This document shows, one piece after another, positions 4,749 to 26,364 of a stretch of DNA of 64,000 bases. The stretch's first letter is position 1; each line of letters opens with the position of its first letter. Below the pieces are notes generated by a model that was not told the origin of the DNA, searched no databases, and saw only the letters and a program-made list of their open reading frames with translations. The stretch is from positions 38,331,030-38,395,029 of the forward strand of contig CM041780.1 of assembly GCA_023374045.1 (NCBI GenBank). The letters run 5' to 3'. This stretch comes from Limonium bicolor. Taxonomy: Eukaryota; Streptophyta; Magnoliopsida; Caryophyllales; Plumbaginaceae. The translations under genes were made by a program, and so were the position numbers.

Positions 4749-4834
4749 ACATTTCCTCGCATCATTGGATTAGAATACGGGAATTACTTATAGCCACAAG
4801 ACTTCCATTACCAACCATCTTTCACATCCAACCT

Positions 4835-5268: not shown

Positions 5269-5296
5269 CATGTCACCGGTCCGAAGACAAAGGCTC
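5269..5296 (-). other. Block shared by elements A and C upstream of the PPT
   Basis: On the minus strand: GAGCCTTTGTCTTCGG then ACCGGTGACATG. It matches C at 60455-60482 over 28 bases, with an imperfect second C copy at 60529-60556. I do not see it in B, so it supports A and C as one non-autonomous family. Confidence 0.75.
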
Positions 5297-6091
5297 ATAC
5301 GTCCTCAGCTCGTGAGCAAGTACTACAAAATATTCTTTACTAGGTTAAGTATATAAGAAGATCTTTATTCAAGATATTAATCGATTGTTTTTAAAACACC
5401 AATTGAAAATTCTTTTGAAAACACCACACAACTCCAAGTCCAGTTTATGCTCCTTGTATCTTTCTTAACATGGTTATTTGTAATCACTTATAGGGAGCTT
5501 CAAGAATCATCCAACACTGATGTGATCAGCATCGTGTTGAACTATCTTTCCACCCCAATTTGTGTTCGGCTTCCCTTGATCTCATGATAATCAAGTTTCA
5601 CCTCCCACTTCATTTTCAACCAACAATTAATTCAAGCATATCCCATTTTCTATCTTTGAATCTCTCTAGTCATAATCATTACATCTCCAAGGGATAGAAC
5701 TCCGTCTATCAATCATCATCCAAATCCAACTTAATTCAAGTTACCTAGGGAATTTAATTCTCACTAGGTTCTATGTCGGTCTCATAACCCTTCATAAATC
5801 ACAACATTGTATATATATACATATATTTTTATCAAAATACAATACATGGTTTGTACTTATTCACCGTCGGGGTTTTAGTTCCCCGGGAGTTTCTTTACTC
5901 CCTTCCACTTGTACTAACACACTTCCCACAATGGTATTCGCATCTTCTGTGCGCAATCACCTCAATTTACCCACAAATAAATGCGTATGTTTATATAACA
6001 CACGCGCCAACCATCATAACAATCATTTTGTGCTATGCACAACCCAGTTCACGTACACTTGTACGATAAACACACTAAGTGGTTTTTTTGC

Positions 6092-6128
6092 GCTCTACCC
6101 CCCCTAAAAGGGATTACCCCACGTAATC
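6092..6128 (-). other. Second (internal) PPT-like module of element A
   Basis: On the minus strand: GATTAC-GTGGG-GTAATC hairpin (6112-6128), CC, then TTTTAGGGGGGGTAGAGC (6092-6109). It lies about 1.4 kb inside the true PPT. Elements B and C hold the same module, so it is unlikely to be chance. Confidence 0.7.
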
Positions 6129-8516
6129 ATCACTAACCTTGGCTTAAAATGTTCTACCCTAAACCGTCGTGAAGTGTTTTAAACTTCCACGCGGTCCATT
6201 ACCAATGGATTCTGATTAGGATCTTAACCATATTGGCGGTTTTAGTCCCATAAACAAGAATTCGCATTGGAGTTGTAACTCATAACCGGTTTCGGTCCTG
6301 GGCCTGTGAGGCTTTTAGGTAATGATAACTAGTCATTTATTCATATCACCAATATATATCCGGTACCCTGACGCATGGGCTCACTGGCCTCTGTTGCGCA
6401 ACCCTGATAATTATAGCTGGTTTGCCCCATTCGTTACTGTTAATGTATTGTACATCTCCAATGTATTACCTTATCTTGGGAAAAATGGTTTCTCAACCGA
6501 TGCATGGTATCTCTTACCCTGAGCGAATTCGGTGAGTTTCACAATTTTCCATCTATTTCTACAGCATAAACTACTATGTAATTCGCAATGATTGACTTGC
6601 TTCTACCGACTTATTGTCGGTTGAGATTGAGCTACTACCTAATGTGTAGTGCTCTCTCACTTATTTCCCACACCTGGGGTATATCTCATACCGACCTTTG
6701 GTATTTAGTGTTACTGTAGTTATTTACTGTTAATCATGTCTCCACCCTTGGTTTTGTACATGTATTCTTTCATTGGTGCGGCCTTGCATTTCCTATGCAA
6801 CCGCCATTATAACATTATTCTTCCACCATTACCATGCTTCGGATTCCTAGCTATCCCACTCGTTCATTACTGTGCAGGAGCAATACCAAAACACTCAGTC
6901 ATACAGAGTGCAGAGGCGTAAACCCTTGACAGCAACTCTCTTATGCGATTGCGATAGAATTTTCACTGAAATCCTTATCATCTAACCCTTGCCACCGGCT
7001 TACTGCTCGGTTCGTTTGCTATCCCTTAATGTTGTACCTCCACTGGGTTTAACTCATAACTCTGCTCACTCCCATTTTATCATTTAACAATATTCACACA
7101 ACGGTCGCTTATTGCGCACCGTATCCTTACTCATTATATAGCATCAACTTATACTGTATCCGCTATTATATTAGCTTCTGCTTTTAAGCTAGGTTTATCT
7201 GGCCACTTATTTGGCTGATTTTTGAATATATCATTATCTTTCCCTTGAGCGTTGTTCGCTACACATTTAGCTTCACACACCTACGGTGATTGCTATCAGA
7301 CTTATTACACTCCTGCGTACACAACTGGTACGAGCACTTCCTTTCGTGTTATTTTATTTAAATCACCCTGGGGTAATAACAACGTGGTCCATCCTCCACA
7401 CATCTCTTGAACTTGATTCACATAACTACCGCTCCTGCGGTCTCACAATATCGAGAGGTATCCCACTCTTAATGCAGTGGTTAGCTTACCACTCTATTCA
7501 CTTATACCACATAAACTTCTACAATCAACCGAATTCGTATAACATATCTTACTCATGGCTTATAAGCCTTATTTGCCTTGAGCTGGGCTTATGTAGGCTG
7601 TCCACACACATGTACTTCTCTGTACAACATTACATGTTTAGAGGTTGTATTGGCATCCATGACAAGGTTGTTGCATCACATTTCCTTTCATGGGATGCCC
7701 CTTAGGATTGCCAGTCCGTCTCCTGACAACTTATGTCTAATCTGGGCGTTAATTTCAACCCTTGTGTTTCTGTCATATATTTCGTTCAACAATTGTTGAT
7801 GCGCACACCCTTCGAGGATTGCTCCTGGGTGTTGCTACGTTATGCCTTACATTTGTTTCACACTTTTTGGTACATTCCGTTATTATCTTCTTCTGTAAAG
7901 ATCAACATTTCCAGACAGTGTAGGTACTGATTCTGGGAGTTTCATCCCGTTCATTGCACATTAATGTGTCCACATTAGGCATCTGCCTTGCCCTGCTTTT
8001 CAGCTATCATGTTTATCCCTGGGGATCCTTAAGTCACATAAGCTGTCTTTACATAACAGTCAGTGCACTTTGCACTTCCTGACTCTTAAAACATTTCCTT
8101 GAAAGGAATTCACTAATTCCTTTAGTCTCGTTAACTTAACTGAGTTCCTTGACTTCAAGCATTCCTTGTATTTTCTAGCTCCTGTTGTTCAATACTGCTG
8201 ACCGTAGACGGAGTCGACTACTTCCCGTGTTCGGACTCTACTCGTATACATATATGGGGTATCATACTGATACATTACTACTTACCTAACTAACCTATAA
8301 GTAGGTCTGTCAGGTCCACATGCTCCTATCGGAGTGCGGTCGTCCCACAACACAGTTGGTACACTTGTAGTGTCCGTCACACGCCTAGGTGAAGTATTCT
8401 GTTGTCAACGCCCTTATATTGTCCCGTGACAATATTCATTCCTTACTTCCCGAACTTAATCGAGGGAAGGTTTATCCACTGTCGCATCCTTGTCAGTCGC
8501 TCTTGGTTTCACTGGT

Positions 8517-8615
8517 TTGGTTTAAAAAAGTTGGAAAGAAGTGTTGGTTTGAAAGAAAATCTGGTTTGAAAAGAAAAGGGTTTGGGAAAGATTAGGTTTG
8601 AAAGAAAATTTCCAT
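8517..8615. repeat. GGTTTGAAAGAAAA direct repeats
   Basis: Four imperfect copies of a GGTTT(G/A)AAAG-type unit make a purine-rich stretch on the + strand (pyrimidine-rich on the element's coding strand). No gene; I do not see it in C. Confidence 0.6.
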
Positions 8616-8793
8616 GGTTTCACAACATCTTCTCACCTTAGCCAAGTCTAGCTTCTTGCTGACTGGTGTACTTCCAATTACAGAGGTTAGGCTAACAGGC
8701 CCTTCCACTGTTATGACGATCACATTTAACTCCATGGTACTTTTCCAAGTACCTGTAGTGGTTATGAATTTCCCGAACAGCCCTGTTATAGCA

Positions 8794-8813
8794 GCACTTG
8801 CTATGGCAAGTGC
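8794..8813 (-). other. Perfect 8-bp hairpin conserved between A and C
   Basis: Minus strand GCACTTGC-CATA-GCAAGTGC, preceded by GCATGGC. The same 27-base stretch is in C at 56487-56513, in otherwise diverged internal DNA and at a similar distance from the PBS. A packaging or dimerisation hairpin is one possibility. Confidence 0.75.
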
Positions 8814-9607
8814 GCCATGCTAACTGGCTATCGGTTTGACACCTACCGATTGTGGTATTGTTTTGACACATATTGTCCTCAGTGGCCTTGTTGGCCCACA
8901 CTGATCTTACTGCCTTGATGGATACTCCTCTAGGTGACTTCTCACTGTTTCCACACGTAATAATCATTCACTAGGGTGTTTCCTATTCTGGGAGACCCTT
9001 TGTCTTAGTATTATACTCACTTGTAGCCCGTTCCACGCACTTGTGTTACTGAGACTTGTCTCTTGTTTGGGCACTACGTTGTAGTTCCTTGTCGGTTGGT
9101 ATACCGTTGGTGTATTATTTATCAACTGTGTTCCGTAGACTCTTGTCTCGGATTCCATTAATCCATTTCTTGCCTGTTGCACGGTTGGTGCGTTGCAAGC
9201 TGGTCATCCTCGACTGCTCGGCATGTCGACCGAGGTTGCCAGAAATTCTATTCCTCTTTACACAAAATCCTTCATTTGTCGCTATAGAATGTGGTTAACA
9301 TTATTCAGATGGAGACCGTCTCCGGGATTCCCAGTTTCCGGGACCTACCGTATGACAGGTTCTCCGTACCCTAAGGGTATTTAATAACAGCCAGATCGGG
9401 TATTCCCGAGTAAGAGAGGACTTCCATCTCTCTGGCGTTCTTTCCCAAGTTATCAAACAGGGATTGTGGAGGGTGGGATGGATATTGTAGGTTTCCAGTA
9501 GTCACTGGTAGTTCCTATCTAGCGTATCTCTCACGCTATCACTCAACCCTTAACCCAAAGTACTTAAATCCTAACTCGGTATTTCCTAAGCTCGGTAATT
9601 CAGTCAT

Positions 9608-9633
9608 CAGAGCGATACTTCGCTCTGATACCA
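9608..9633 (-). other. Element A PBS overlapping a hairpin
   Basis: The minus strand reads TGGTATCAGAGCG (9621-9633), complementary to the 3' end of initiator tRNA-Met, five bases after the LTR end. CAGAGCGA-AGTA-TCGCTCTG (9608-9627) forms a perfect 8-bp stem whose first arm is the 3' half of the PBS. Confidence 0.9.
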
Positions 9634-9638
9634 CTTTT

Positions 9639-12600
9639 TGTAACACCCCATCCAACAACCAACACATAATAACAATTCGCAGCGGAAATTCAACTCATCA
9701 CATTACTTATTCCAATGGTGTTACACGCCGTTAACCACCTACGTGGCTAACAAGGCTAATACATGTACATTTGTATCGGTCTGATGGACTAGATTCCCGA
9801 GCAACTACTCAATACAATACTCATTCCATCTTCAGCATTTATTATATACATACACTTCCCCTGTACCGAGTATTTACACTACTGCCGATAACAATTTCGG
9901 TCTTACTACGCCTATCATATTCATGCCATTTAAATGGCTACCCATATATAACATCTATCTGCCCCGTCCTACTCTCGAACGGCTTCCAGCTCTCCGTACC
10001 TGAAACAGAAAAGAAGAGAAAGGGTGGCCCCAAGGGGCTCAGCACCTTTGCTGGTATGGTAATCCCGCAGCCCACATGCTACCGGGCCACGCACAACTAA
10101 TTGTCGTCTTAGCATGCAGTTGATTATATTTAAATCATGCATACAAGCCATATCCATACAAACATAATATTTCGCCTCAATGGGCTCAATCTATAACCAA
10201 ACATCCACACTTAACCAACCATCCAATGATTCCTTAAACCCTAGAGTGGCTCTCCTCCAAAACGGAGCTACTTCCTTAACAGACGACATGTACCCATTAA
10301 TCGGGTTATCCTTAAACGCCTCTTGTCACAACTGGGATTCATTTCCATGATCCAACATTCCATATCCTACAACATATCTCATTCCACACATAACAAAAAT
10401 AACAAACCTTTCTTGCTTCGATGTACACATGACAACGTTGCATTCATTTAAACACCCAATATATATATATATATCAAAGCATAGCAAGGGAATTTGCATA
10501 GCACTATAACATTACATACACCATAAAATCGGTTCTCACAAGGAACCTTCCACCATAGTTAGTATACCAGTGAGCCTAGAGATTATTACCAATCCCATGT
10601 TAAGCTCGTTACCATCCTCGTTACCGTCCGGTTATATAGAACGGTTAACTTATACCCAAGGTGTGTCGGATATAGTAATCCCAAGCACACCGAAATAACA
10701 TAACGCATGCCCTGTGGCCCGACGTGAGTCAGTAACTAGCTTTGGATAAGCTAAGGGAAGGTAGAAACCAAATTGGAATACCACCTATACATACACCAAG
10801 AGAGCCGAACCGGATAAGATAACGACTCCCGTCCATCACACGCGTGGCCGGAAACAATCCGGACTCCTCACCCCCGTTAGTACATATACCATATAAATAA
10901 GTAGTTAGGGATCCATTATGGAGCCTACCACATCCACACACCATGCGGTATCATAACCGAGTTAAGCACACAAGGGAGGTTCACACACTTGCATACAACA
11001 ACAATATCCAACCAACTCACACATAGCCGTGGTTAGCACGTTCCCAAGGTTTGGGCCGTCAACTCCGAATACCGATCACTCATGTGTTCCTAGTTTTAGT
11101 TAGCTAAGGTTTACACATATTTGAGGTTAAACGGCATCGGATACCAAATTCGCCACATAAATGAATTACTATAAACTCATTACATGTTTTAATCTTACAA
11201 GGTGGCAACATTCAATAAAACATATTGGCATACAAGCCGGTGTAATCCGTTAGGACACAGGTTGCAAGAAACCATACCTGTCACCGGGGTCCACTTTACC
11301 ACGTCCACCTATGTTCCTCGAGCAAACTCTCGAACAACTGTTAACACATGTGTTTTCATTAACATCGGGGTTTGCTTGATTATTTAATGTCAATGCTTAA
11401 TTTTCCCCCGTTAACTTATTTATATATCTTAACATTACTTTTAACTTGTTTACTTTCCATTCATTTTAATACACCTTTTAGCCCACTTTATTGTCATTAA
11501 ACTCACCTAACAGTCCTTAACATCCTTATATCATTATCATCATTACCTACCAATCCCCATCATCTCATTTCATTTCATAACCTTAAACCATGTTTTTGGT
11601 CCGACCGACCCACCGACCGACCCACATCTGGGTCGGTCCATCACAGACCCCTTTTACTTCCTTATTAACATGCCCGTCCGACCCACGTCCGACCCACCAT
11701 TCTGGGTCGGTCCATGTGCGAACATTTTTCCACCTTTGTAACTTGACCGACCGACCCATGTCCGACCCACCCTTTGGGTCGGACCATTACCGAACACATT
11801 CCAAACATTTTACAGAGGCTCGACCGACCCACAAACTGGGTCGGCCCCTGGGTCGGTCGCCTCCTAAGCTTACCCAAACTTGTCAAATCTTTACCAAACT
11901 TCTCCTAAGACCTCTTAATGTGTTCTAACATCATTTGGCACTTCAAAACACACCCTCAAGATATCTTAAGCACTCACAAAAACTATGTTTCCTAATTCCT
12001 TAAACCTTTACTTATATCTCCACAAAGTTCCTAACACTTACAATGTTTTCTCCTTATAATTTCTAGGTGGCATTTCACCTATCATAACTACTATCCCAAA
12101 ACACTTTCTCCTCATCTTAACATCATCTCTTAAGCATCATTTTCTTACTAACTAAATCTCCTTTTTACATCATACCTAAACATCACTTGTTCCTTGAACA
12201 TCAACATTACCTAAACCTTAAACAACTTCTTACACATTTCCCAAATTTGGCCATAGCTTCTCTAGTATATACCCACATCCAAACACTTAGGTTTTAACCT
12301 TAATTCATTCAAGAACACCTAAAAATCCATCAAACACATTTTATACACAACTTCACACATAAGCACTACATCACAATATAGTGCATAACTTAAATTGCTT
12401 GGCACTTAGGCCCTTAAATAGCATGGCTCTTAGGCCCTTAAATTGCATAATCCTTAAACACTGAATTTCCCACATAATAATGCCTTTGACCTGCAAATAC
12501 ATCCAACAATTCATATGCCTTTAATAAACCCCTTGAGAGCATTTTACTAGCTCGTTTACCATTTGCTCTTTAGGTGATTTTAACAAGCATTATAAGCTTA

Positions 12601-14085
12601 TTTCTCCTAAGGCATTAAACCACATTGAGATAGCTTGTTTACCTCTTTTCCTCACAAATTTCCTTCTTGTTTCCTTGTAAAACCGGTAGGGCATTTGGTT
12701 CCTTGCCAACAACTAAACAATATACCAACTTTAAAATGAGTATATAAGCTTTAAGCTTTATCTCATTGTAAACCCTAGTTACATATATTATCTTAAGGTA
12801 TTAACATGATTGTTTTACCTTGGAATGGAAAGAGAGCTTGAATATATATCAAGAGAGGACTCCACCTAGCCCTTGGGAGATTCAAATGAAGCTAAAACAA
12901 GACAAGAAAGACACCATTACAAGGTGCATTTTCGGTTATGACAAAACATGAAGGAAATGTCATTTTTCTTTGAGTTTCCTTACCTTGAAGCAAAGGAGAA
13001 CAAGAATATGTGAAAAGGTGAGCTCAAGCTCCTCCCATGGTGATTCCTCTTGGCACCGAAATGGTGGTTTTGAGGATTTGAAAGGACAAGGTTGAAGAGC
13101 TTGCTCCAACTAAGAGAACGGTAGTCTCGGAATTAAATTCGGAGCATGGAGTCATAAGTTACAAGTGAGGAAGGATGAGAATGGCATGGCTCTGTTTGGA
13201 AACCGATGGAGAGAGGAGGAAGAGAAAACCACCGTGGGAAATGAAGGGAAGAAGAGAATGAGAAGGTAAGTTTGCTTTTGTTAAGATATTTATCCTTATA
13301 AAGCAAATAGTATACTAATTAGTCATTCTTTCTTTTCTTTGTAAACTAACAAAGGTGGTGAGTCACAACACCTTAAAAACCGGCCCCAAATAGTGCCTAA
13401 GGGTACTTTAGACTTTATTAGTCAATTGTCTCACTTATCACATTATATGTTACAAACTAGTTATAAAAATCACTATTCACCAACTAAGGCACATAGAAGT
13501 GAAATTTTTGATTTCCCACTAATATGGCCACCCAAATGTGATACTATATAGTACACATGTTAATTAAAGAGTAATGATGGACATTTAGCCACTCAAAACT
13601 CATTTACAAGACAATTTTTCAAAAACGTGCTTTAAGACTCCTTAAAGCACATTTTGCGTTTTAACTTGTTTTCAAGCTTGGTTTTCTTTGGTAATTGATT
13701 TAATATGTTCATTACCATATAAATAAGGTATAGGTATGACCATTAGGTCTTATACACACTCATCCCAAGCTTAGAGCACATTTTTGCTCATATTGACTTA
13801 AGGTATTACCTTGTGTTTTATTTGGTTTCATTGTCTACCAAAGTTTCCTAAGGACTTATTTAGCCTTATTAAATCATAATTAAATGTTATCAAGTCTTGG
13901 TAGGCCCTTTGGGTCCTAACCAAGTTCACTCCAACCTTAGAGCATGTTTTTGCTCAAACCGTGTCTTAGTGTTTTATTGTGTTTTACCATGGTTTAAACT
14001 ATACCCTGATGTTCCTAAGGCACTTTTTAGCCTTTAGATACACATTTAATCATTTAGTCAACATACCAAAGTTTGGGGTATTTCA
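9639..14085 (-). repeat. Element A 5' LTR (right copy)
   Basis: 4447 bp; collinear with 309-4711. Differences are largely one- or few-base indels, many in homopolymers (for example runs at 10003-10035 against 669-700). Contains the same conserved blocks (about 10000-10118 and 11201-11285) and the inverted-motif array at 11598-11860. No gene. Confidence 0.95.
11598..11860. repeat. CCGACCCA / TGGGTCGG inverted-motif array (A, right LTR)
   Basis: Counterpart of 2252-2508. Because the motif and its complement carry no stops, open frames appear on both strands here (11590-11928 and 11665-11886); these are repeat artefacts. Confidence 0.85.
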
Positions 14086-14107
14086 TCATTGGGCATCTCT
14101 AGGTGGC

Positions 14108-14416
14108 GTCCGACCCAAGGGTCCGACCCAAGTTTGGGTCGGACGACCTCTGTTTAACGCCAGGGAAAGGTTCTGGAATGGTCCGACCCAGAGGACTTGG
14201 GTCGGACAGGTGAGTTTTAGAGGGCAGATAAGTTTCTGGAATGGTCCGACCCAGAAGGTTGGGTCGGACGTGGGTCGGACATGGGAGGTTTTTAGAAGAC
14301 GGAAAATTTCTGGAATGGTCCGACCCAGTTGGTTGGGTCAGACTGGGTTCGGACATGTAGAGTTTTTTTCAAAACCCGAAAGTTACTGGAAGGGTCCGAC
14401 GGTGGGTCGGACGGCC
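14108..14416. repeat. GTCCGACCCA / TGGGTCGGAC inverted-motif array (B, 5' LTR)
   Basis: Roughly 60-base units, each with a GGTCCGACCCAG arm, a short spacer and a TGGGTCGGAC arm. B uses TCCGAC/GTCGGA arms where C uses ACCGAC/GTCGGT, so both arms differ together. Reading frames on both strands here are by-products. Confidence 0.85.
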
Positions 14417-14722
14417 CTTAACACTTAAAAAAAAAAGAAATTTTGAATTCTAAGATTGATAATTGGTAATAAGGTATACCTTTGGTAGGGTGGTAATGAT
14501 TAGGACCCTAAGAACTTAAGGGATTAAGTTAAATTAAGTTAAGTATAAATTGTAATGTTTAAAGTTATGTTTGTAAGCTAAGTGGCAAAGACTTGAGAGG
14601 ATTATTGAATGGGAATCCTTAGGGACTAAGTGAGTTAAGTAAGGTGCAAATAACTAATGACCTAAAAATGAATGAATGTTTTAGGTTTGTGAGTTGGGAC
14701 CCGAAAGGTTAAAACAACAACG

Positions 14723-14834
14723 CGACGGTGAACGGTACAATCCTTCTTGTGACCTGCTTGCTAACGAGGTGTCCCTCGGCTTGTGTGCTATCTGTTTTAT
14801 TGCTATGACTAAACAAGATAAAGCATGCAACCGG
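14723..14834 (+). other. Conserved mid-LTR block (B, 5' LTR)
   Basis: Includes GTGAACGGTACA, TTCTTGTGACCTGCTTGC, the CGAGG-TGTC-CCTCG hairpin, CGGCTTGTGTGCTAT and AAGATAAAGCATGCAACCGG. Nearly identical in C (54028-54141), although flanking LTR DNA is much less alike. Second B copy 25193-25305. Confidence 0.6.
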
Positions 14835-15450
14835 TTATATTTATTCTCGTTGTGTTTGTGTTATCTTTACACTACCCGCGAGACTTGAGATGGTTACTAA
14901 CCAAGTTTAGTACTTACTGAGTTAAGAATAAGAGTTAAGTTTGATGGTTGTTGGTTAATGCCCGTTAAGGCTTAGCTCGCACATGGTGATTAAGATGTCT
15001 ACTAACTGGAACTTGAGTGAGGAAACCCGGGACCGATCTCCGGTCAGGCATGCTAAGGAAAAAGGGAGACGGTATCTGAATCAGATCCGCCCTCCGCTTA
15101 AGGACTTGTCTTCGGACTTGTAGCCTAGGGCCGTTGCCGGCTCAGCTACGCTGGACTCCCGTCCCGAGTAGGTGGCATTAAGATCGTGCGGTGGGATCAC
15201 CTAAATCCCAGATTCGAATTAAGCTACAACCATTCCCTTCCAGGAACGGTTTGTATACTGAGAATGAGTTGAGATTGATATTAAGGTAAGGAACTGAGAT
15301 TAAGGAAATGAGGACTAAGGAAGGGGTTACTAACCCACTTGATAAGAGAACGCTTGAGTCGTTCATTGTTTGTGAACTATATGTGTTCATCTGTGACTAT
15401 TGTTACTGCACTTCATATTGTGCTTGTGTATGTAATCAATTTCCATGCTA

Positions 15451-15556
15451 TCGACAATTATTCGTCGTAGCCCCGTTAGCTTGGGGGCCATGAGAGGGTG
15501 TACCAGCATTCGTGCTGACCCCCCTTGGGGGCTATTTTTACACTTGCAGGTAAGAG
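15451..15556 (+). other. Conserved LTR 3'-end block (B, 5' LTR)
   Basis: Contains TCGACAATTA, GCTTGGGGGCCATGAGAG, the GCATTCGTGC hairpin, CCCC-TTGGGGGC and a pyrimidine tract ending in TTGCAGGTAAGAG, which has both splice-acceptor and splice-donor appearance. Matches C 55136-55236 and B 25914-26022. Confidence 0.6.
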
Positions 15557-15898
15557 ACCCATGAGGACGCACTACGAGAGTAGGAGCGGTTAGACTTAGG
15601 GTGGGATGTTTATTTGAGTTCGGGTTGCGCTTGTGCACCCGACTGTTTATATTTAAACTGATGTAAGGTTGAGATTATGTTTAAGCTACTTGTACTCGGT
15701 TGGTTGTGGTATTGTGGTTGGTGATGTTTTGAGTTGGATAAGTATTTTGGATAAGTATTGTAAATGTTAAGGCCGGTATATTCTAACGATCAGACCGTGG
15801 CAAGGTCCAGGTGTTTATTATTTCCACTGCGACGTATTCGATTAAGTGTTCAGTTTTGCGATAACCACGAATGGCTTTGGGTGGGGTGTTACAAAAAG

Positions 15899-15923
15899 TG
15901 GTATCAGAGCGTACTACGCTCTG
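15899..15923 (+). other. Element B PBS (tRNA-iMet) overlapping a hairpin
   Basis: TGGTATCAGAGCG at 15899-15911, five bases after the LTR, complements the 3' end of plant initiator tRNA-Met. CAGAGCGTA-C-TACGCTCTG (15905-15923) is a perfect 9-bp stem that starts inside the PBS. Confidence 0.92.
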
Positions 15924-16770
15924 ATCAAGAAATACCGGACATGAGTAACCACCGAGTTAGGATATAAGTTAAGGAATAAGTGATGGGTTAAGGGTGTGAG
16001 AAGTTAGAGCGAGTAGAGTCAGATGACCACTAATAAGTGTGGATCGTCTTTATCGTCTACGGACGTTATAAATTCGTTAACCGAAACAGTGGTGAATACA
16101 AATCTAATGTGAGTTATGCTTGTTCAGATGGCAGGACGTCCTAGGGAAGCCGAGGTCGCGGCCAGGGTGATGATGCTTCAGGAATACCTGGAGGGCAGAC
16201 GATCGCAGAGATCGTAGCTGCCGCATTAGGGTATATGGGCTATCAGCCTGGTGTGGGTGCACCACCTCCACCGCCACAACCTAGGGAACCAAACTGGGTG
16301 AAGAGTCTAGCAGATCTTCGACCCGCGCACTTTAAGGGGGAGACCGATCCCGCCAAGCTTGAGGCGTACATCTCCGAGCTGGAGACCGCCTTCGAGACCC
16401 TTGATGTCCCTGCTGGGATCAAGGTGCGTCTAGCTGCTGCCTTCTATCTGAAGGGGGCGGCAGGCGATTGGTGGAAGCTGGTGAGGGCAAGCATGTGGCC
16501 AATCCAGAGTTCGGCTGGGAGCAGTACACCGCCTTGCTACGAGCAAAGTACTACCCCGCCCATGTCCAGACGAAGAAGCGCTTACAGTTGGATGCGCTTA
16601 AGTAGACGGACAAGATGACAGTGGATGAGTATTACTCAGAGTTCACTGCCTTGCTCCGTCTTCTGCCAGGTCTTGGATACTCTGACCAGATCTTGGTGGA
16701 CCGCTTCTATGGCAGGCTAAGCCATCGACTCCACTACGGCATGGGGCCGACGAGTTACACTACCTTGCAG

Positions 16771-16855
16771 GTAATAAGAATGATTGAGATTTGAGTAAGT
16801 AATGAGTAAGATTTAGATTATGAGAAATAAGAGTGACTAATACTATGGAAAGCAG
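16771..16855 (+). other. Putative intron 1 in element B gag
   Basis: Starts CAG|GTAATAAG and ends GAAAGCAG|GAG; 85 bp, AT-rich with stops. Gag sense continues across it: SYTTLQ before and ECYHAAAKVE after, in the same phase. Typical plant intron size. An alternative is a non-spliced insertion. Confidence 0.6.
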
Positions 16856-17107
16856 GAGTGCTATCATGCCGCTGCTAAGGTTGAGATAACCGTCCAGCTG
16901 AGGGACGAGGAGAATGCTAAGAGGAAGAGTGATGGTAAGAGCTCAGAGAGTCAAGGGCAAGGAGGGTACAAGAAACAAAGTACCAGCCTCAGGCCCAGAA
17001 AAATCAGAACCCAAAGGGAAAGGAGGAAAAGGAGAAGGCTCCGGAAGAGCCATTGAAGTTGACGTATGCTATTGCAGCTACACCCCTGCGCTCTAGGGCG
17101 CCAAAGG

Positions 17108-17186
17108 GTAAGGAATTGATATTGAATGTGTTAAGAAACAAATTAGTAACCATTTGAGATATGAGAATTGACATTATAATCATCAG
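17108..17186 (+). other. Putative intron 2 in element B gag
   Basis: Starts CCAAAGG|GTAAGGA and ends CATCAG|GATCTG; 79 bp, AT-rich with stops. The frame TPLRSRAPKG before it continues after it into the segment leading to the first zinc knuckle. Confidence 0.6.
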
Positions 17187-17526
17187 GATCTGAGACTGAG
17201 AAGGGAGCCGGTGGTGGCTACCAGCGACGCTTCATCTGTAGGTGGTGTCACAAGGACCACCCCGGCTCGACTGTAAAGGGAACAAGGTGGAGTGCAACTT
17301 TTGTGGAGTTTATGGACACCGGGCATATGAGTGTTACCGGAACCCTGCTAGCAGAGCCTATAGGCCCGATACCAGGGGCAAGGGCAAGACCGACCAGGGA
17401 GCTGGATCTGACGGTCAGAGGAAGGTGCAGCAGCCGGCGGACAAGAACCCACGGGTGACCCAGAAGTCGGGACCCACTTTACACATGGTGGACCGGACGA
17501 TGAGCCTGAACCCTCATCGAGGCCAG

Positions 17527-17658: not shown

Positions 17659-18395
17659 GAAGATTCAACATCTGCTACCCAATACCATCTACACACCAAC
17701 CCGGAGCACACCGACATCGAAACCATAGACTTTCCAACTGAACAATGTCAGGTTATCCGCCCAGGTACGATTTTATTAAGGGGATACCTGACACCCGAAG
17801 CACAAATAGCCATCATCAGAAGATGCAATCAACTAGGAATGGACCGGGAGGTTTTACACACCGGAGTACCCAGGGGGAGCAAGGATGAAATTAAAGATGA
17901 TGAGCTTGGGCAAGGATTGGAATCCGTATGCCAGGAATTACCAAACCATGAGGGTGCAAGATGGAGTCTCGCCACCGGGAATACCCGAAGAGTTCCATCC
18001 AGTGATTACACAAGTCGTGGAAATCGCTCAGCAGTTGGAAGCTGAACCGATTCCAGACATCCAGGCAGACATTTGCATTGTAACTTCTACGAGAAGGATG
18101 GGAAGCTGGGACTACACCAGGATAAGGACGAGACAACGGAGTCTCTCGAAAGAGGGATACCCGTAGTGTCTTTGTCCATTGGAGATGATGCGGAGTTTTT
18201 ATACGGCGAGCAGAAGCGTGCGGACCGTGCAGATAAGTTAGTACTTAAGTCAGGTGATGTGTTAATTATGGGAGGAGAATCAAGGATGTTATACCATGGG
18301 ATTAAGAGAATCAAGCTGAATACACAATCGTCAGCAGTAATCAATGCGACGCATATGAGACCAGAAGATTAAACCTAACCTTTAGACAATATTAG
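17659..18395 (+). pseudogene. AlkB-like 2-oxoglutarate/Fe(II) dioxygenase domain captured in element B
   Basis: AlkB enzymes oxidatively remove alkyl groups from nucleic-acid bases using Fe(II) and 2-oxoglutarate; some plant RNA viruses carry the domain. Seen here in order: RPGTILLRGYLTPEAQ (from about 17760), LKMMSLGKDWNP (17887-17925), IPEEFHP, NFYEKDGKLGLHQDKDE with the iron-binding HxD (His 18115-18117, Asp 18121-18123), PVVSLSIGDDAEFLYG, LKSGDVLIMGG, the distal iron-binding His in MLYHG (18295-18297) and RLNLTFRQY with both 2-oxoglutarate-contacting arginines (18366-18386), then TAG at 18393. That is about 245 codons, near full length for the family. Three frame changes (near 17880, 18080 and 18365) interrupt it, so it is not translatable as printed. 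It lies between gag zinc knuckles and protease, on the element's strand, with intron-like borders. Source (host gene or virus) cannot be told here. Confidence 0.88.
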
Positions 18396-18549
18396 CCATG
18401 TAATGTTAGAAGGAGATGAGGAATGAGATGTAATATTGAAGCACATTTGTAAACAGGATGGTCATGAATAAGATAACAGTGTTGTTCATATAAATTGTTA
18501 CGACTCTTGTTATACCATCAATACTCATGAAGCTTGTGAACACAATTAG
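18396..18549 (+). other. Non-coding linker between AlkB and protease
   Basis: 154 bp of AT-rich sequence with stops in all forward frames, ending in AATTAG|GTTATGGAC, a possible splice acceptor directly before the protease frame. It may be the 3' part of an intron or an untranslated spacer. Confidence 0.45.
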
Positions 18550-19035
18550 GTTATGGACTCGGTACGGAAGTGCACTAAGCATACTTACAGAGGCACAGCC
18601 GACGCCAGCGGTACTATCCTCACCGGCACCTTTTCGATTAATGGGATTGAGGCATCAGTTCTCTTCGACTCAGGGGCCTCGCATACCTTTGTCTCGGCAT
18701 CATTCGCGAGCAGGTTGGGGCTAGATGCTGATGAGCTACCCGACTTCACGGTTACGCTCCCGTCTAAGGAGAAGGTTCGTTGCACTCGTTATTACCGAGG
18801 AGCCACTATCAGAATTAAGGGAGAAGACTTTTCAGTCAGTTTCATTGAGTTCAGTAAGCTAGGATTTGATGTTATCTTCGGGATGAACTGGTTGGAGCGG
18901 CACAAGGGACATATCCTCTGCGCCGAGCATAGATTGCTGCTCAGGAGTCCGTCTGGGGTAACAATATCATACCGCCAGAGGCCCAGAGAGCCTTCGACTA
19001 GGATTATCACCGCCATGGCAATGTATACGAATTAA
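18550..19035 (+). pseudogene. pol: Element B pol: retropepsin-type aspartic protease
   Basis: Cleaves the Gag-Pol polyprotein. An ATG at 18553 opens the frame; the active-site triad region is VLFDSGASHTFVS with the catalytic Asp at 18667-18669, followed by the flap-side FDVIFGMNWLERH typical of Ty3/gypsy proteases. A TAA at 19033-19035 closes the frame, but the next codons continue in the same frame into the reverse transcriptase leader. The break is therefore a single nonsense codon, not a domain end. Whether pol starts here or is fused to gag by splicing or frameshift is not resolved. Confidence 0.88.
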
Positions 19036-20560: not shown

Positions 20561-21936
20561 ATTTGAGAGTCAGAAATACGACTTCAGACTTCATGATGAT
20601 GATTTGATCAGACTTAAGGGCCGTTATGTATACCACGGGGCAACACGGATCTGAAAGACCGTATACTTAGAGAATCACACTGTTCTTCAGTTTCCATCCA
20701 TCCGGGAGCCTCTAAAATGTACAAAGACATGAAGAGATACTTCTGGTGGTCGGGGATGAGACCGATGTTACTAGATTGAGGTCAGAATGTTACACCACGA
20801 GTTCGTCTTGAGGTGTCTCACATGCCAAAGGTGAAATTCGAGCACCGACGACCGGGCGGAGGTACAGTCGATGCAGTTCCGGAGTGGAAGTTCCATGATA
20901 TCTCCATGGACTTCGTAGTTGGGCTTCCACCTGCTAGGGGAGGTCTCAACATGATATGGGTGGTGGTGGATCGCCTTACCAAAGTAGCCCGATTCATACC
21001 GATGAAGGATACTTGGAAGGTGACCAAATTAGCTGAGTTATTGAGAATGAAATCATGAGACATCACGGCATACCAAAGACCATAGTGTCAGATAGAGATA
21101 CCAGATTCCTTTCGAGGTACTGGAGAGCTACCAGAGAAGCGTTGGGTACAGAACTCAAGCTGAGTACCGCGTTCCATCCTCAGACAGATGGTCAGACTGA
21201 GCGTACTATTCAGACACTCAAGGACATGCTGAGAGCATGTGCCTTAGACTTCCAGGGCAGTTGGATTGACAGATTGCATCTGATCGAGTTTGCATACAAC
21301 AACAGCTATCACGCTTCGATCAAGATGGCACCTTTTCAAGCGCTGTACGGTAGACCATGTCGTACACCGCTCTGCTGGGATGAGTCGAGTGAGACGGTCA
21401 TTATAGGACCAGAGTACTTAGAACAAGTTAAGGCTGAAGTTCAGCAAATTGGGGAGAACATGAAAGCTGCTCAAGATAGGCAGAAGTCGTATGCTGATGT
21501 TCGACGACGGGACCTGGAGTTCACAGTGGGCGACCAGGTATTTCTGCGAGTTTCACCGATGAAGGGTGTATTCAAGTTTGGGCAGAATGGCAAGTTAAGC
21601 CCGAAATTTGTTGGTCCCTATGAGATTACGGAGCAGGTGGGCCCGGTTGCTTACAGGTTGAATTTACCTGCTGAGCTGGGTAAAATGCATGATGTTTTTC
21701 ATGTTTCACAGCTAAAGAAATACATGCACCACCCCTCCCATGTGTTAGAACCTAAGAAGTTGAAATATGAGATCCGTGGAGACTCCTCAGAGAATCTTGG
21801 ACAGTAAGACTAGGGACACTCGCCACAAGTCAGTGCGACTGGTGAAGGTTCTCTAGTCTAACCAGGATGTCGAAGAGGCTACGTAGGAATTAGAGGATAA
21901 GATGAGGGTGAAGTACCCTTCTTTGTTTACTGACTA
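20561..21936 (+). pseudogene. pol: Element B pol: integrase with C-terminal chromodomain
   Basis: Inserts element cDNA into chromosomes. The zinc-binding part is damaged but recognisable near 20670-20830 (ESH, FHPSGASKMYKDMKRYFWW after a frame shift, CLTCQ). The catalytic core shows D in ISMDFVVGLP, D in TIVSDRDTRF and E in DGQTERTIQ, with a frame change near 21050. The C-terminal part has GPYEITEQVGPVAYRLNLP and MHDVFHVSQLKKY. After 21807 a further frame carries the chromodomain remnant (VRLVKVL, NQDVEEAT, ELEDKM), with two TAG codons where tryptophan is expected, ending at TGA/TAG near 21936. Chromodomains of this clade bind heterochromatic histone marks and bias insertion, which fits the nested setting. 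Confidence 0.9.
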
Positions 21937-22211: not shown

Positions 22212-22248
22212 GAACTTTGAGGACAAAGTTCTTTTAAGGGGGGTAGAT
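22212..22248 (+). other. Element B PPT with adjoining hairpin
   Basis: GAACTTTG-AGGA-CAAAGTTC perfect 8-bp stem (22212-22231) runs straight into TTTTAAGGGGGGTAGAT (22232-22248), next to the LTR TG at 22249. The purine tract primes plus-strand DNA synthesis. Confidence 0.88.
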
Positions 22249-24565
22249 TGAAATACCCCAAACTTAGATATGGTGTTTAAATGATAAAATAAGATATAGG
22301 AGGCTAAATAATGCCTTAGAAACCATTCTAACCAAAGAAATATAAGGAAACTCCAAAAGAGCAGGTTAAGCAAAAACGTGCTCTAAGCTTGGAGAGACTT
22401 GGGAGAGTAACCCAAATTTGTTCTAAGACCTTAGTAATATCCTAATGGTCATTTTAAATCAATACCAAAGAAAACCAAGCTTTAAAACAAGTTAAAACAC
22501 AAAATGTGCTTTAAGGAGTCTTAAAGCACGTTTTTGAAAAATGTCTTGTAAATGAGTTTTGAATGGCTAAATCCATCATACTCTTTAATTAACATGTGTA
22601 CTATATAGTATCACATTTGGAAGTCTACATCAATGGGAAATAAAAAATTTCCCAACAATGTGCCTTGTTTTGTGAATATAATTTATTTAAGCTAGTTTAT
22701 AACATAAGTCAATATAAGTGAGATATTTGGTCAACAATGACTAAGTACCCCTTGTTACTAATGGGGGCCGGTTTCTTGTAAGGTGAGTCACCACCTTCAT
22801 GACTCATTAAGTAAATAAAGACTTATAAAGCAAATGTACTATTCACTTTTTAACATAAATATCACACTTTAGTAGTTCTCTCTCTCCTCACTTCTTCATT
22901 CTCCTTTGTTCCCACGGTTTTCTTGCTCTCTCTCCCTTCTCCATTAACGTGAAGCAACACCTCCATGCTAGCTTCATCTAGCCTTGCACACAACTCACTC
23001 ATTTTAGCTCCAAAGCCAAAACAAATTACATATTCTCCTTAGTTAGCTCAAGCCTCTCTCTCCTATCTTTTCAAACTTCAAGAGCTTCATTTTGGTGCCA
23101 AGTCAAACCACCATTAGAGGAGGAAATTTCAAGTTTGGAGACTCCATTGGCTTCTCCATTCTCTTAAGGTAAAGAAAAGTGTAAGAAAATCTAGGTTCCA
23201 TCATTTTCTTCCTGTCTGAAAATTTGTACTCATGGGACTCCATGTTTATGCCTTGTTCTAGCTTGTTTTCTACTCTTCAAAGGATTGAGGAGTCCTTCTT
23301 GCTTCATATCCAAGCTTTGTCTTGAGAAACCAAGGTAAAACAATCACCTTAATGCCTTAAAGCAAACACATTTTTAACCTAGGGTTTGTTCCTTAGGGTT
23401 AATGTATTATCTAGTACTCATTGGAGTTTTGGATATTGGTTAGAACATTGGCAGGAGATATATATTGGTGACCGAGATTGAGCTAAAGGAAAACCTAAGG
23501 AAGAAAGCTTTTTAAGCTTGTAAAAAGAACAAGGTAAATTACTTACCTTAAGGTGTTTTATTGTTAAGGGAATGAGATTTAGATATGTGATGAGTTTATA
23601 ATTAAAAAGGGGTTATATATAACCTAGGATAAATAATGACTATACTTGTGAACTTGTGACGAAAGAGCCAAATGAGAAGAAGAAATAGTTTAAAATGCAA
23701 AATAATGTTGAGATGAATTATAAGAAGCATTTTATTTCAATGGGAGCCTTGTTGTGTGTATTCGTAGGTTAAAGGCAAATATATGGAAATTCAGTGGTTA
23801 AGATTATTGTCATTTAAGGGCCTAAGTGCCAAGCATTTTAAGTTTAAGCACTATATGATGATGTGGTGTGGTTTTGGTGTAAATTGTGTGTTAAGGTGTT
23901 GTGATGAGAATTTGGGTGATGTTGGTTGTTTGATGGAGAAAAACCAAGTGTTAGTATGTACTATGTACTAGAGAACCCATGGCAAAATTTAAAGGAGAAC
24001 TTAGGTGTTTAAGATATTCTAAGGGAATTGAATGACTAAGGAAGTACTAGGATGTTCTAGAGGTTGTCTTGATGAAAAAGGGTGAGATTAAGGTGTTCTA
24101 ATGACTTATAATGACTTAGCCACCATGAAGGATTTAGGAATCAAAAGAATGTATTTGAGTATTTAGGACTTAGGTAAATGTTGATAAAAGAAGCTAGGAA
24201 ACCTTGGTAAGTTTGGTGTGATTAAGTGTGAAACTTCGAGATGATTTAGATAGAAACTAGAGTTTAGAATTTAAGGAAAACCTTAGAAAGTGTAAGATAG
24301 ATGAAAGTGGTGTATGTGGTGTGGCCAAGTCCATAAGGAGGGAACTTTGGGCTAGTAGAAGTGCTAGGTGAAAGGAATGTTGAAATGTAGGAAGAAGTAA
24401 GTGTTAAGTGTTAGTAGTTGTTGTAAGAATTGTGTAAAGGATGGGAATGAGTTTGGAGGATGGTTTAAGATGAGTTTAAGGGTCTAAATGATGTTAGAAC
24501 ACATTGGATGGCTTGAGGAAAGGTTTAGTGAAGATTTGGCAAAGTTTGGGCATGTTTTGGTGGCG

Positions 24566-24883
24566 TCCGACCCAGGGTCCGACCCAAGTTTGGGTCGGAC
24601 GGCCTCTGTTTAACGCCAGGGAAAGGTTCTGGAATGGTCCGACCCAGAGGACTTGGGTCGGACAGGTGAGTTTTAGAGGGCAGATAAGTTTCTGGAATGG
24701 TCTGACTCAAAGGTTGGGTCGGACGTGGGTCGGACATGGGAGGTTATAGACGAAAATTTTCTGGAATGGTCCGACCCAGTTGGTTGGGTCGGACGTGGGT
24801 CGGACATGTAGAGTTTTTCAAAACCCGAAAGTTACTGGAATGGTCCGACCCAGAGGGTGGGTCGGACGGTGGGTCGGACGGCC
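24566..24883. repeat. GTCCGACCCA / TGGGTCGGAC inverted-motif array (B, 3' LTR)
   Basis: Intact counterpart of 14108-14416, showing what the A insertion site looked like. Units alternate a CCGACCCA arm and a TGGGTCGG arm with a TTCTGGAATGG spacer. Confidence 0.85.
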
Positions 24884-25192
24884 CTTAACACTTAAAAAAA
24901 AAAGAAATTTTGAATTCTAAGAATGATAATTGGTAATAAGGTATACCTTTGGTAGGGTGGTAATGATTAGGACCCTAAGAACTTAGGGATTAAGTTAAAT
25001 TAAGTTAAGTATAATTTTAATGTTTAAAGTTAAGTTTGTAAGCTAAGTGGCAAAGACTTGAGAGGATTATTGAATGGGAATCCTTAGGGACTAAGTGAGT
25101 TAAGTAAGGTGCAAATAACTAATGACCTAAAAATGAATGAATGTTTTAGGTTTGTGAGTTGGGACCCCGAAGAAGGTTAAACAAACAACGAT

Positions 25193-25305
25193 CAACGGTG
25201 AACGGTACAATCCTTCTTGTGACCTGCTTGCTAACGAGGTGTCCCTCGGCTTGTGTGCTATCTGTTTAATTGCTATGACTAAAACAAGATAAAGCATGCA
25301 ACCGG
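25193..25305 (+). other. Conserved mid-LTR block (B, 3' LTR)
   Basis: Second B copy of the block described at 14723-14834, with the same CGAGG-TGTC-CCTCG hairpin. Confidence 0.6.
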
Positions 25306-25913
25306 TTATATTTATTCTCGTTGTGTTTGTGTTATCTTTACACTAACCCGCGAGACTTGAGATGGTTACTAACCAAGTTTAGTACTTACTGAGTTAAGAA
25401 TAAGAGTTAAGTTTGATGGGTTGGCTAATGCCCGTTAAGCTTAGCTAGCACATGGTGATTAAGATGTCTACTAACTAGAACTTGAGTGAGGAAAAACCGG
25501 GACCAATCTCCGGTCATGCATGCTAAGGAAAAAGGGGACGGTATCTGAATCAGATCCGCCCTCCGCTTAAGGACTTGTCTTCGGACTTGTAGCCTAGGGC
25601 CGGTTGCCAGCTCAGCTACGCTGGACTCCCGTCCAGAGTAGGTGGCATTAAGATGGTGCGGTAGGATCACCTAATCTCAGTTTCGAATTAAGCTACAACC
25701 ATTCCCTTCCAGGAACGGTTTGTATACTGAGAATGAGTTGAGATTGAGATTAAGGTAAGGAACTGAGATTAAGGAAATGAGGACTAAGGAAGGGGTTACT
25801 AACCCACTTGATAAGGGAACGCTTGAGTCGTTCATTGTTTGTGAACTATATGTGTTCATCTGTGACTATTGTTATTGCACTTCATATTGTGCTTGTGTAT
25901 GTAATCAATTTCC

Positions 25914-26022
25914 ATGTTATCGACAATTAGTCGTCGTAGCCCCGTTAGCTTGGGGGCCATGAGAGCGTGTACCAGCATTCGTGCTGACCCCCTCGGGGGC
26001 TATTATTACACTTGCAGGTAAG
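25914..26022 (+). other. Conserved LTR 3'-end block (B, 3' LTR)
   Basis: Second B copy of 15451-15556; here the G/C hairpin is CCCCCTCGGGGGC, a change in the loop and not in the stem. Confidence 0.6.
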
Positions 26023-26364
26023 AGACCCATGAGGACGCACTACGAGAGTAGGAGCGGTTAGACTTAGGGTGGGATGTTTATTTTGAGTTCGGGTTGTGCC
26101 TGTGCACCCGACTGTTTATATTTAAACTGATGTAAGGTTGAGATTATGTTTAAGCTACTTGTACTCGGTTGGTTGTGGTATTGTGGTTGGTGATGTTTTG
26201 AGTTGGATAAGTATTTTGGATAAGTATTGTAAATGTTAAGGCCGGTATATTCTAACGATCAGACCGTGGCAAGGTCCAGGTGTTTATTATTTCCGCTGCG
26301 ACGTATTCGATTAAGTGTTCAGTTTTGCGATAACACCACGAATAGCTTTAGGTGGGGTGTTACA

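What the first reader, a model, noticed from the sequence alone, without database searches (positions are those of the whole stretch)
17659..18395. AlkB dioxygenase domain embedded between gag and protease of a chromovirus
The iron ligands (HxD at 18115-18123, His at 18295-18297), the 2-oxoglutarate RLNLTFR motif (18366-18386) and several structural blocks are all present in family order, so a nearly complete AlkB domain lies inside a Tekay/Del-like retrotransposon. I know AlkB domains in cellular repair/RNA demethylases and in some plant RNA viruses, but not as a regular part of chromoviruses. It could protect element RNA or cDNA from alkylation, or remove host RNA methyl marks (m1A, m6A) that limit transposition. 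It is interrupted by three single-base frame changes, yet catalytic residues survive, which would be unlikely after long neutral drift.
Basis: partly seen in the sequence, partly recalled or inferred. Interest (0 to 1): 0.93.

Follow-up and report, generated by a model that had tools for sequence, protein, structure and literature searches.

The report
Plant retrotransposon carrying an AlkB gene
A plant "jumping gene" related to retroviruses carries a nearly complete, now frame-shifted copy of a DNA/RNA-demethylating enzyme between two of its standard genes; a different enzyme of this kind is already known from such elements in one orchid genus, so this looks like a second, separate case rather than a wholly new kind.

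Summary
Positions 17659-18395 encode an essentially complete AlkB dioxygenase domain broken over several frames: HMM pieces of 178, 124 and 24 bits against at most 7.4 in 20 shuffled windows. It lies between gag and protease of a Ty3/Gypsy element with ~4.1-kb LTRs and, by eye only, a damaged chromodomain. The enzyme resembles plant OsALKBH1/ALKBH1C-D, with a plant-type FDIC motif just upstream. Five unnamed proteins, P0001-P0005, are its closest relatives; the window shares 18 of 19 residues that set them apart from plant host genes, and with them lies outside the sampled plant-type genes. The genomic setting of the five could not be seen, so a stable AlkB-bearing family is unproven.

The broken frames do not show age: LTRs differ by 2-3%, and the frame changes match the indel rate of the window's larger LTR pairs, whether mutations or assembly errors. 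Prior art: Phalaenopsis Tat/Ogre-like Gypsy elements carry an ALKBH5-like m6A demethylase (PMC9289625). This case differs in AlkB subfamily, position and apparently element lineage, hence a new variant of a known kind. Function is inferred only.

The parts
1..308 (+). part of the element's 5' LTR, cut off from the rest by a minus-strand insertion; continues beyond the window start
   Evidence: 98.7% identical to 24242-24550 inside the 3' LTR
309..14085 (-). minus-strand LTR element nested in the 5' LTR (LTR pair 309-4711 / 9639-14085); TTGGG at 304-308 and again at 14089-14093, three bases beyond the aligned LTR end (my reading); does not carry AlkB
   Evidence: LTR pair; flanks printed; no gag/AlkB/pol hit, no ORF of 100 aa on its own strand in 4700-9700
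14089..15893 (+). remainder of the 5' LTR, ending TTACA
   Evidence: aligned with 3' LTR
15899..15910 (+). primer binding site TGGTATCAGAGC (initiator-Met tRNA type; label recalled)
   Evidence: sequence printed
16145..17526 (+). gag, in more than one frame; CCHC knuckle at about 17293-17334
   Evidence: sub-cut-off Pfam matches: Ty3_capsid 17.0, Retrotrans_gag 18.3, zf-CCHC_3 19.0 bits
17527..17658 (+). AT-rich (69%) spacer between gag and AlkB; possible intron (CAG|GTACCA ... TTTAG|G), hypothesis only
   Evidence: composition; donor ranks 18 of 373, acceptor 79 of 584 with a recalled matrix
17664..17681 (+). FNICYP, equivalent of the plant-type FDIC motif upstream of the AlkB domain (frame 2)
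   Evidence: matches FDICYP of P0001; motif in 81 of 92 plant-type proteins with 40 or more residues before the domain, 0 of 71 other hits in their first 60 residues
17659..18395 (+). AlkB (2OG-Fe(II) dioxygenase) domain of OsALKBH1/ALKBH1C-D type with a stop codon at the usual C-terminus, broken over frames 2, 0, 1, 0, 2
18115..18123 (+). HxD iron ligands
18295..18297 (+). distal His iron ligand
18366..18386 (+). RLNLTFR 2-oxoglutarate motif
18396..18549 (+). AT-rich spacer between AlkB and protease
   Evidence: 18397-18549: 153 bases, 67% AT
18550..19032 (+). protease
   Evidence: RVP_2, 93.6 bits
19036..20563 (+). reverse transcriptase and RNase H, frame-shifted, with in-frame stops
   Evidence: RVT_1 80.6 bits, RT_RNaseH 109.4 bits; 20363-20563 has no Pfam match of its own
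20618..21804 (+). integrase, frame-shifted
   Evidence: Integrase_H2C2 41.3 bits, SH3_Tf2-1 93 bits, Integrase_p58_C 29 bits; rve core only at E 0.12
21791..21934 (+). probable chromodomain remnant (LVKVL*SNQDVEEAT*ELEDKMRVKYPSLF), two in-frame stops
   Evidence: read by eye; 30-aa piece 21764-21853 without Pfam match; label recalled
22236..22243 (+). polypurine tract
22249..26364 (+). 3' LTR, about 4.1 kb

Best explanation
A Ty3/Gypsy element, probably a Tekay/Del-like chromovirus, took up from spliced RNA of a plant ALKBH1C/D-type gene a complete AlkB domain that now sits in sense between gag and protease and ends at its own stop codon (shown: position, domain, subfamily; inferred: capture from spliced RNA). 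It was probably intact when this copy inserted and belongs to an AlkB lineage represented by five other sequences, likely other copies or related elements (inferred). Most likely mechanism (inferred): the element's AlkB, made as its own protein or as an extension of Gag, removes adenine methyl groups from single-stranded nucleic acid of the element, either its cDNA and R-loops (the OsALKBH1 activity) or its RNA (as proposed for the orchid element), and so relieves a host mark or damage that hinders replication.
For: Essentially full-length domain and catalytic residues. Closest solved structure is rice OsALKBH1: 104.6 bits for the catalytic piece; for relative P0002 the model (pLDDT 96) matches OsALKBH1 at TM 0.93, E. 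coli AlkB at about 0.83 and ALKBH5 at about 0.57. FDIC motif in 81 of 92 plant-type proteins and 0 of 71 others. Window keeps 80 of 91 residues invariant in P0001-P0005 and 18 of 19 residues that separate that group from the consensus of 33 plant host genes, none host-like. LTRs 44/2089 to 57/2091 substitutions apart: a young copy. Four frame changes in 0.74 kb (5.4 per kb) against 4.9-5.9 indels per kb per copy in three large LTR comparisons (1.6 and 2.6 in two short ones), so they need no older decay. Changes avoid conserved sites: 8/84 against 21/93 after trimming fragment edges, p 0.015; untrimmed 11/91 against 22/101, p 0.055. Host enzyme activity: rice ALKBH1 demethylates 6mA in ssDNA in vitro and its loss raises 6mA in R-loops (PMC10469495, abstract and passages; that PDB 5xeg is this same gene was not checked).
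Against: Only one element copy was read. The setting of P0001-P0005 is unknown; they may be cellular genes. Frames are broken, so this copy is inactive unless the assembly is wrong. The selection test is weak: untrimmed p is 0.055, and P0004 fails it (p 0.17). The neighbouring pol shows fewer frame changes per kb (about seven in 3.3 kb, my reading) than AlkB. A search for gag-AlkB fusions of about 340-1080 aa gave none, with a poor query. Two related LTR elements in the window lack AlkB. A published screen of 121 angiosperm genomes found 2-ODD only in Phalaenopsis (PMC9289625). The chromodomain is by eye only. No activity data for this protein.
Confidence: 0.5

Rival explanations
1. Passenger capture: a reverse-transcribed host ALKBH1 transcript was picked up by template switching, spread in one or a few copies, and never served the element.
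For: Gene capture by plant LTR retrotransposons is well documented (reviews PMC13317346 and PMC7264820, passages only). This copy is broken. Two related LTR elements nearby lack AlkB.
Against: The window copy shares 18 of 19 group-specific residues with five other sequences and none of the host alternatives, so it is not a fresh copy of a sampled plant gene; window and P0001-P0005 fall outside 33 and 117 sampled plant-type genes; conserved sites change less (trimmed; only borderline untrimmed).
Confidence: 0.3
2. A separate processed gene copy or other element inserted into this one chromovirus copy after it integrated.
For: AlkB is flanked on both sides by AT-rich, apparently non-coding stretches and has its own stop codon.
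Against: No flanking duplication beyond chance between 17450-17680 and 18380-18620 (longest shared word 9 nt; 9 or more in 41 of 200 shuffles), no poly-A tract after the stop codon, same strand as gag and pol, at the gag/protease boundary.
Confidence: 0.08
3. P0001-P0005 are cellular genes of plants outside the sampled angiosperms, and this element captured its AlkB recently from such a gene in its own host.
For: P0001-P0005 carry no names and no context; they and the window lie outside the sampled plant-type genes; P0001 keeps the FDIC motif.
Against: P0001 and P0002 read as complete, P0005 as nearly complete, uninterrupted domains although host genes seem to have introns there (inferred from mis-spliced models P0036, P0081, P0154); P0002 stands for four member sequences (cluster at 90% identity, one contig listed); the window also holds a Copia element of a kind that I recall as usual in angiosperms, which argues weakly against a non-angiosperm host.
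Confidence: 0.2
4. The frame changes are assembly errors of a noisy long-read draft and the element encodes an intact AlkB (compatible with the best explanation).
For: Indels are frequent in the three large LTR comparisons (4.9-5.9 per kb per copy), most of 1 nt (13 of 21, 32 of 46, 19 of 31), although substitutions range from 1.6 to 2.9%.
Against: Some stretches show no change of frame (494-aa Copia gag; about 1.2 kb of protease-RT); two short LTR comparisons have fewer indels (1.6 and 2.6 per kb per copy); indel counts depend on the aligner; in-frame stops also occur in pol and in the probable chromodomain.
Confidence: 0.35

Closest known systems
Phalaenopsis Gypsy_Pa_2799 family with paALKBH5-like ORF2 (PMC9289625; read: parts 1-4 of 7 and the Discussion)
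   Same: Ty3/Gypsy plant LTR retrotransposon carrying an AlkB-family domain with the iron and 2OG ligands; idea that it demethylates nucleic acid to help the element
   Different: There: Tat/Ogre-related, 25.5 kb with 6.4-kb LTRs, AlkB in a separate ORF2 of 565 aa, ALKBH5/9B/10B clade, m6A RNA activity shown in vitro, many copies. Here: probable chromovirus, about 4.1-kb LTRs, AlkB between gag and protease, OsALKBH1-type domain, one broken copy, activity untested.
Plant OsALKBH1 / ALKBH1C-D-type genes (PDB 5xeg; PMC10469495, abstract and passages)
   Same: Same domain, FDIC motif before the domain, same C-terminus, best structural match (TM 0.93 for relative P0002)
   Different: Element-borne and contiguous where host genes appear interrupted (inferred); residues that differ from the host consensus at 18 of 19 tested columns; falls outside the sampled plant-type genes
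Tekay-clade chromoviruses with an extra 5' ORF (sunflower, maize, sorghum, rice; PMC11728184, passages only)
   Same: Chromovirus of the same probable clade with an additional protein besides Gag-Pol
   Different: In that paper's passages the sunflower extra protein (5' aORF) matches no known domain; none is called AlkB
AlkB domains of plant RNA viruses (Alphaflexi-, Betaflexi-, Closteroviridae; as cited in PMC9289625)
   Same: Mobile genome with its own AlkB
   Different: The window's domain is of the plant ALKBH1 type with the FDIC motif; viral AlkB sequences themselves were not compared
TET/JBP dioxygenases in fungal DNA transposons (PMC12730594, search listing and start of abstract only)
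   Same: A transposable element that encodes an Fe/2OG-type demethylating enzyme
   Different: Different dioxygenase family, substrate and element class

Membership tests
AlkB family (Pfam 2OG-FeII_Oxy_2) | Profile match above the curated cut-off | tested here: met
   catalytic piece 90.5 bits, cut-off 31.2; the middle piece alone 16 bits, below it; N-terminal piece none
AlkB family (Pfam 2OG-FeII_Oxy_2) | HxD...H iron ligands and RxxxxxR 2OG motif in order | tested here: met
   read at 18115-18123, 18295-18297, 18366-18386, in two frames
AlkB family (Pfam 2OG-FeII_Oxy_2) | 2OG-dependent demethylase activity | not testable with these tools
Plant OsALKBH1/ALKBH1C-D-type proteins | Closer to these than to other AlkB groups with solved structures | tested here: met
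   OsALKBH1 best in PDB by sequence and, for P0002, by fold; FDIC motif
Plant OsALKBH1/ALKBH1C-D-type proteins | Nested within the plant gene clade | tested here: inconclusive
   window piece and P0001-P0005 lie outside 33 and 117 plant-type proteins; non-angiosperm genes not sampled by name; short alignments with long-branch warnings; the middle-piece tree gives no starred placement
Phalaenopsis ALKBH5-like Gypsy family | ALKBH5-clade AlkB | tested here: not met
   ALKBH5 structures match P0002 at TM about 0.57 against 0.93 for OsALKBH1; no ALKBH5 among the 23 PDB sequence hits of the window piece
Phalaenopsis ALKBH5-like Gypsy family | AlkB in a separate ORF outside gag-pol of a Tat/Ogre-type element | tested here: not met
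   AlkB lies between gag and protease; element lineage itself not placed by an RT tree
Chromovirus (Tekay/Del-like) | gag-PR-RT-RH-IN order with a chromodomain after integrase | tested here: inconclusive
   PR, RT, RH and IN match Pfam in order, gag matches are below cut-off; chromodomain recognised by eye only, its 30-aa piece has no Pfam match
Chromovirus (Tekay/Del-like) | RT phylogeny places it in Tekay | not tested
   no reference RT set on hand; label rests on recalled sequence features and LTR length

The most novel reading that the evidence does not exclude
A lineage of plant chromoviruses has carried its own OsALKBH1-type adenine demethylase as a stable extra gene between gag and protease, in several plant species and possibly since about the origin of flowering plants, and uses it on single-stranded DNA intermediates: a retrotransposon-encoded DNA adenine demethylase acquired independently of the orchid RNA demethylase.
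Probability: 0.2. Interest if true: 0.8.

Novelty: new variant of a known kind. Interest (0 to 1): 0.5.

Why it matters
If the family is real, two unrelated Gypsy lineages recruited different AlkB enzymes, which would suggest that adenine methylation (of RNA or of single-stranded DNA) is a real obstacle for plant retrotransposons and would allow a direct test of the role of DNA 6mA in plants. If it is a passenger, it is an ordinary gene capture.

Tried and rejected
Processed pseudogene or late insertion: rejected for lack of a duplication or poly-A tract. Bacterial or viral origin: not favoured, because of the FDIC motif and the closeness to OsALKBH1; bacterial relatives are more distant (the six acidobacterial loci L004-L009 are 41-47% identical to P0002), and 3 IMG/VR contigs encode distant AlkB (33-37%). 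Viral AlkB sequences of plant RNA viruses were not compared. A first scan of viral contigs with P0002 found none.

A neat splice model (one donor after gag, alternative acceptors before AlkB and before protease, all in phase 0) was drafted in the notebook. The FNICYP match puts the AlkB start in another frame, and splice scores with a recalled matrix are only moderate, so it is kept as a weak idea. A first view that the LTR is 1.8 kb was wrong: the 5' LTR is split by a nested element. A first AlphaFold model from five sequences was poor (pLDDT 41) and was not used. P0081 (Artemisia) looked close only because part of its domain is doubled; P0081 and P0154 were left out of the large tree, and P0081 also out of the 33-gene trees, which kept P0154 and used 33 of the plant-type hits and 10 of the other hits. 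The profile search scored a capped 7992 candidates, passed 3927 and listed the best 120. The third protein search, for gag-AlkB fusions, used a poor query and returned 2 proteins, both host-type. Host genome: the genome search did not complete. Rfam found nothing in the window.

Full report
What is there. The stretch 17659-18395 (+) encodes an AlkB dioxygenase domain. An HMM built from five relatives finds three pieces of 177.9, 123.9 and 23.7 bits that together run from profile position 2 to 200 of 210; the last 13 positions give only 7.1 bits. Nothing else in the window exceeds 6.1 bits, and 20 dinucleotide-shuffled windows peak at 7.4. Pfam gives 90.5 bits to the catalytic piece, 16 bits (below cut-off) to the middle piece, and no AlkB match to the N-terminal piece alone. 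The domain ends at RLNLTFRQY-stop, the usual end of the plant proteins. Homology includes FNICYP (17664-17681, frame 2), the counterpart of an FDIC motif found in 81 of the 92 plant-type proteins that have at least 40 residues before the domain, and in the first 60 residues of 0 of 71 other hits. The path of frames is therefore 2, 0, 1, 0, 2: four changes, one more than reported.

The host element. The AlkB lies in sense between gag (knuckle at about 17293-17334) and protease (18550-19032, 93.6 bits) of a Ty3/Gypsy element with RT, RNase H and integrase. The gag matches are below Pfam cut-offs. A damaged chromodomain is recognised by eye; its longest piece, 30 aa, has no Pfam match. The Tekay/Del label rests on recalled features (PSHV before the chromodomain, long LTRs), not on an RT tree. 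The 3' LTR spans 22249-26364, the polypurine tract 22236-22243 and the primer binding site 15899-15910. The 5' LTR is split: window 1-308 matches 24242-24550 at 98.7%, and 14089-15893 matches the rest, with a minus-strand LTR element of 13.8 kb in between; TTGGG stands at 304-308 and again at 14089-14093. That element and another plus-strand one (LTRs 50826-55.5k and 60.8k-64000) have internal regions of about 5 kb with no ORF of 100 aa on their own strand and no AlkB.

Age and broken frames. Global alignment gives 44 substitutions in 2089 aligned LTR sites; MAFFT gives 57 in 2091. Each copy has thus changed by about 1-1.4% since insertion, so survival of a handful of catalytic codons says little about selection. 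LTR pairs in this window carry many small indels: 5.9, 5.3 and 4.9 per kb per copy in three large comparisons, and 1.6 and 2.6 in two short ones. Four frame changes in 0.74 kb (5.4 per kb) are about what the large comparisons predict; pol has fewer (about seven in 3.3 kb by my reading). Whether these indels are mutations or errors of a draft assembly cannot be told here; indel counts also depend on the aligner. Either way the AlkB may have been intact when the copy inserted.

What kind of AlkB. The closest solved structure by sequence is rice OsALKBH1 (5xeg, 104.6 bits), ahead of E. coli AlkB (57 bits) and animal ALKBH1 (41 bits). The first protein search gave 80 hits at E up to 1e-3 among 298 candidates; the top five, P0001-P0005, are unnamed proteins from ENA or lgn contigs. 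The profile search returned 3927 hits at E up to 1e-25, of which the best 120 were listed; those with organism names are angiosperms, and many are labelled DNA N(6)-methyladenine demethylase or ALKBH1C/D-like. At the 91 columns invariant in P0001-P0005 the window keeps 80 residues (three of the 11 losses lie at fragment ends); at 19 columns where P0001-P0005 agree but differ from the host consensus it keeps 18, and none is host-like. On 95 catalytic columns the 33 host genes form one side of a branch (96/99) and the window lies with P0001-P0005 and the outgroup on the other; the tree is short, has long-branch warnings, and three bacterial rows fall on the wrong side. The middle piece also has P0004 and P0002 as nearest rows, without a starred placement. 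The full domain without the window gives host genes 100/94 and the five relatives 56/19; with 117 plant-type proteins the values are 95 and 65, and 89 for the host side on the catalytic columns (SH-aLRT only). So the window's AlkB goes with P0001-P0005 and outside the sampled plant-type genes; whether the six share one origin is unresolved, and gymnosperms, ferns and mosses were not knowingly sampled. AlphaFold on P0002 with 87 sequences gives pLDDT 96; Foldseek ranks OsALKBH1 first (TM 0.93), E. coli AlkB about 0.83, ALKBH5 about 0.57.

Origin. The domain reads through places where host genes appear to be interrupted. I infer these from mis-spliced host models (P0036 has an insert at SGD/LLFGG; P0081 and P0154 repeat segments ending at SIS/VGD and LHQ/DRD), not from gene maps. 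A capture of spliced RNA would follow. There is no flanking duplication beyond chance (9 nt; reached in 41 of 200 shuffles) and no poly-A after the stop codon, which speaks against a later separate insertion.

Selection. Without DNA of relatives, dN/dS could not be computed. On protein level, changes peculiar to the window avoid columns invariant in the relatives: 8 of 84 against 21 of 93 after trimming three residues at fragment edges (p 0.015), 11 of 91 against 22 of 101 untrimmed (p 0.055). The same test gives p below 0.003 for four relatives and 0.17 for P0004. This is weak support for past constraint.

Mechanism. Rice ALKBH1 demethylates 6mA in ssDNA in vitro and its loss raises 6mA in R-loops (PMC10469495: abstract and passages). 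In Arabidopsis, ALKBH9B removes m6A from ONSEN RNA and frees it for mobilisation (as told in PMC12786077 passages, and in the Discussion of PMC9289625). The most likely role of an element-borne OsALKBH1-type enzyme is removal of adenine methyl groups from the element's single-stranded DNA or RNA; I give this functional reading about 0.35 on its own. How it is made is open: the spacers on both sides are AT-rich (69 and 67%) and contain possible splice sites, but splice scores are moderate and the frames do not fit a simple model.

Prior art. Alvarado-Marchena et al. 2022 (PMC9289625; parts 1-4 of 7 and the Discussion read) described Phalaenopsis Tat/Ogre-like elements with an ALKBH5-like m6A demethylase, and found 2-ODD domains in no other of 121 angiosperm genomes. 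My searches of the held library showed, in the listings seen, no report of AlkB in a chromovirus or of an ALKBH1-type AlkB in a retrotransposon: 20 of 196 papers listed; 20 of 24; 15 of 1,412; 14 of 14; 6 of 6; 10 of 12; 12 of 17; 9 of 9. Most subscription papers and all bioRxiv preprints are missing from that library. Tekay elements with a 5' extra ORF are known (PMC11728184, passages).

Verdict. Real, young, and of an AlkB type for which I saw no report in retrotransposons; a new variant of a known kind. The decisive question, whether AlkB is a standing part of an element family, stayed open because the host genome could not be searched (16 unanswered calls, listed in Tried and rejected) and the contigs of the relatives could not be read.

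Noticed in passing
window 309-14085 (-) and 50826-64000 (+): Two LTR elements related to the AlkB element by LTR (about 70-85% identity in aligned pieces), primer-site region and polypurine tract, with internal parts of about 5 kb and no ORF of 100 aa on their own strand: they look like non-coding, non-autonomous (LARD-like) partners.
   Followed up: partly
window LTR pairs (309-4711/9639-14085; 50826-54041/60805-64000; 14092-15893/24552-26364): Small indels are frequent relative to substitutions in the large LTR pairs, which suggests residual assembly errors or an indel-prone genome.
   Followed up: partly
window 39251-47846: Copia element (LTR pieces 97.5% identical) with a 494-aa gag ORF and a downstream, sub-cut-off Transposase_32-like ORF at 45480-46819 split over two frames.
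   Followed up: partly
window about 30040-31443 and 48725-50168: Two similar stretches with the same tandem arrays (161-bp and 126-bp units), perhaps LTRs or copies of a further repeat that flanks the Copia element.
   Followed up: no
window 26365-26500 and 36387-36519: The sequence just after the AlkB element's 3' LTR is 95.6% identical to a stretch 10 kb further on: the element may have inserted into another repeat.
   Followed up: no
L004 (2301-2894) and L005-L009: Acidobacterial AlkB proteins are 41-47% identical to P0002, the best matches of the genome-contig scan; the plant ALKBH1C/D family may have a bacterial source of this kind.
   Followed up: no
L001, L002, L003: Three IMG/VR contigs encode distant AlkB proteins (33-37% identity to P0002).
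   Followed up: no
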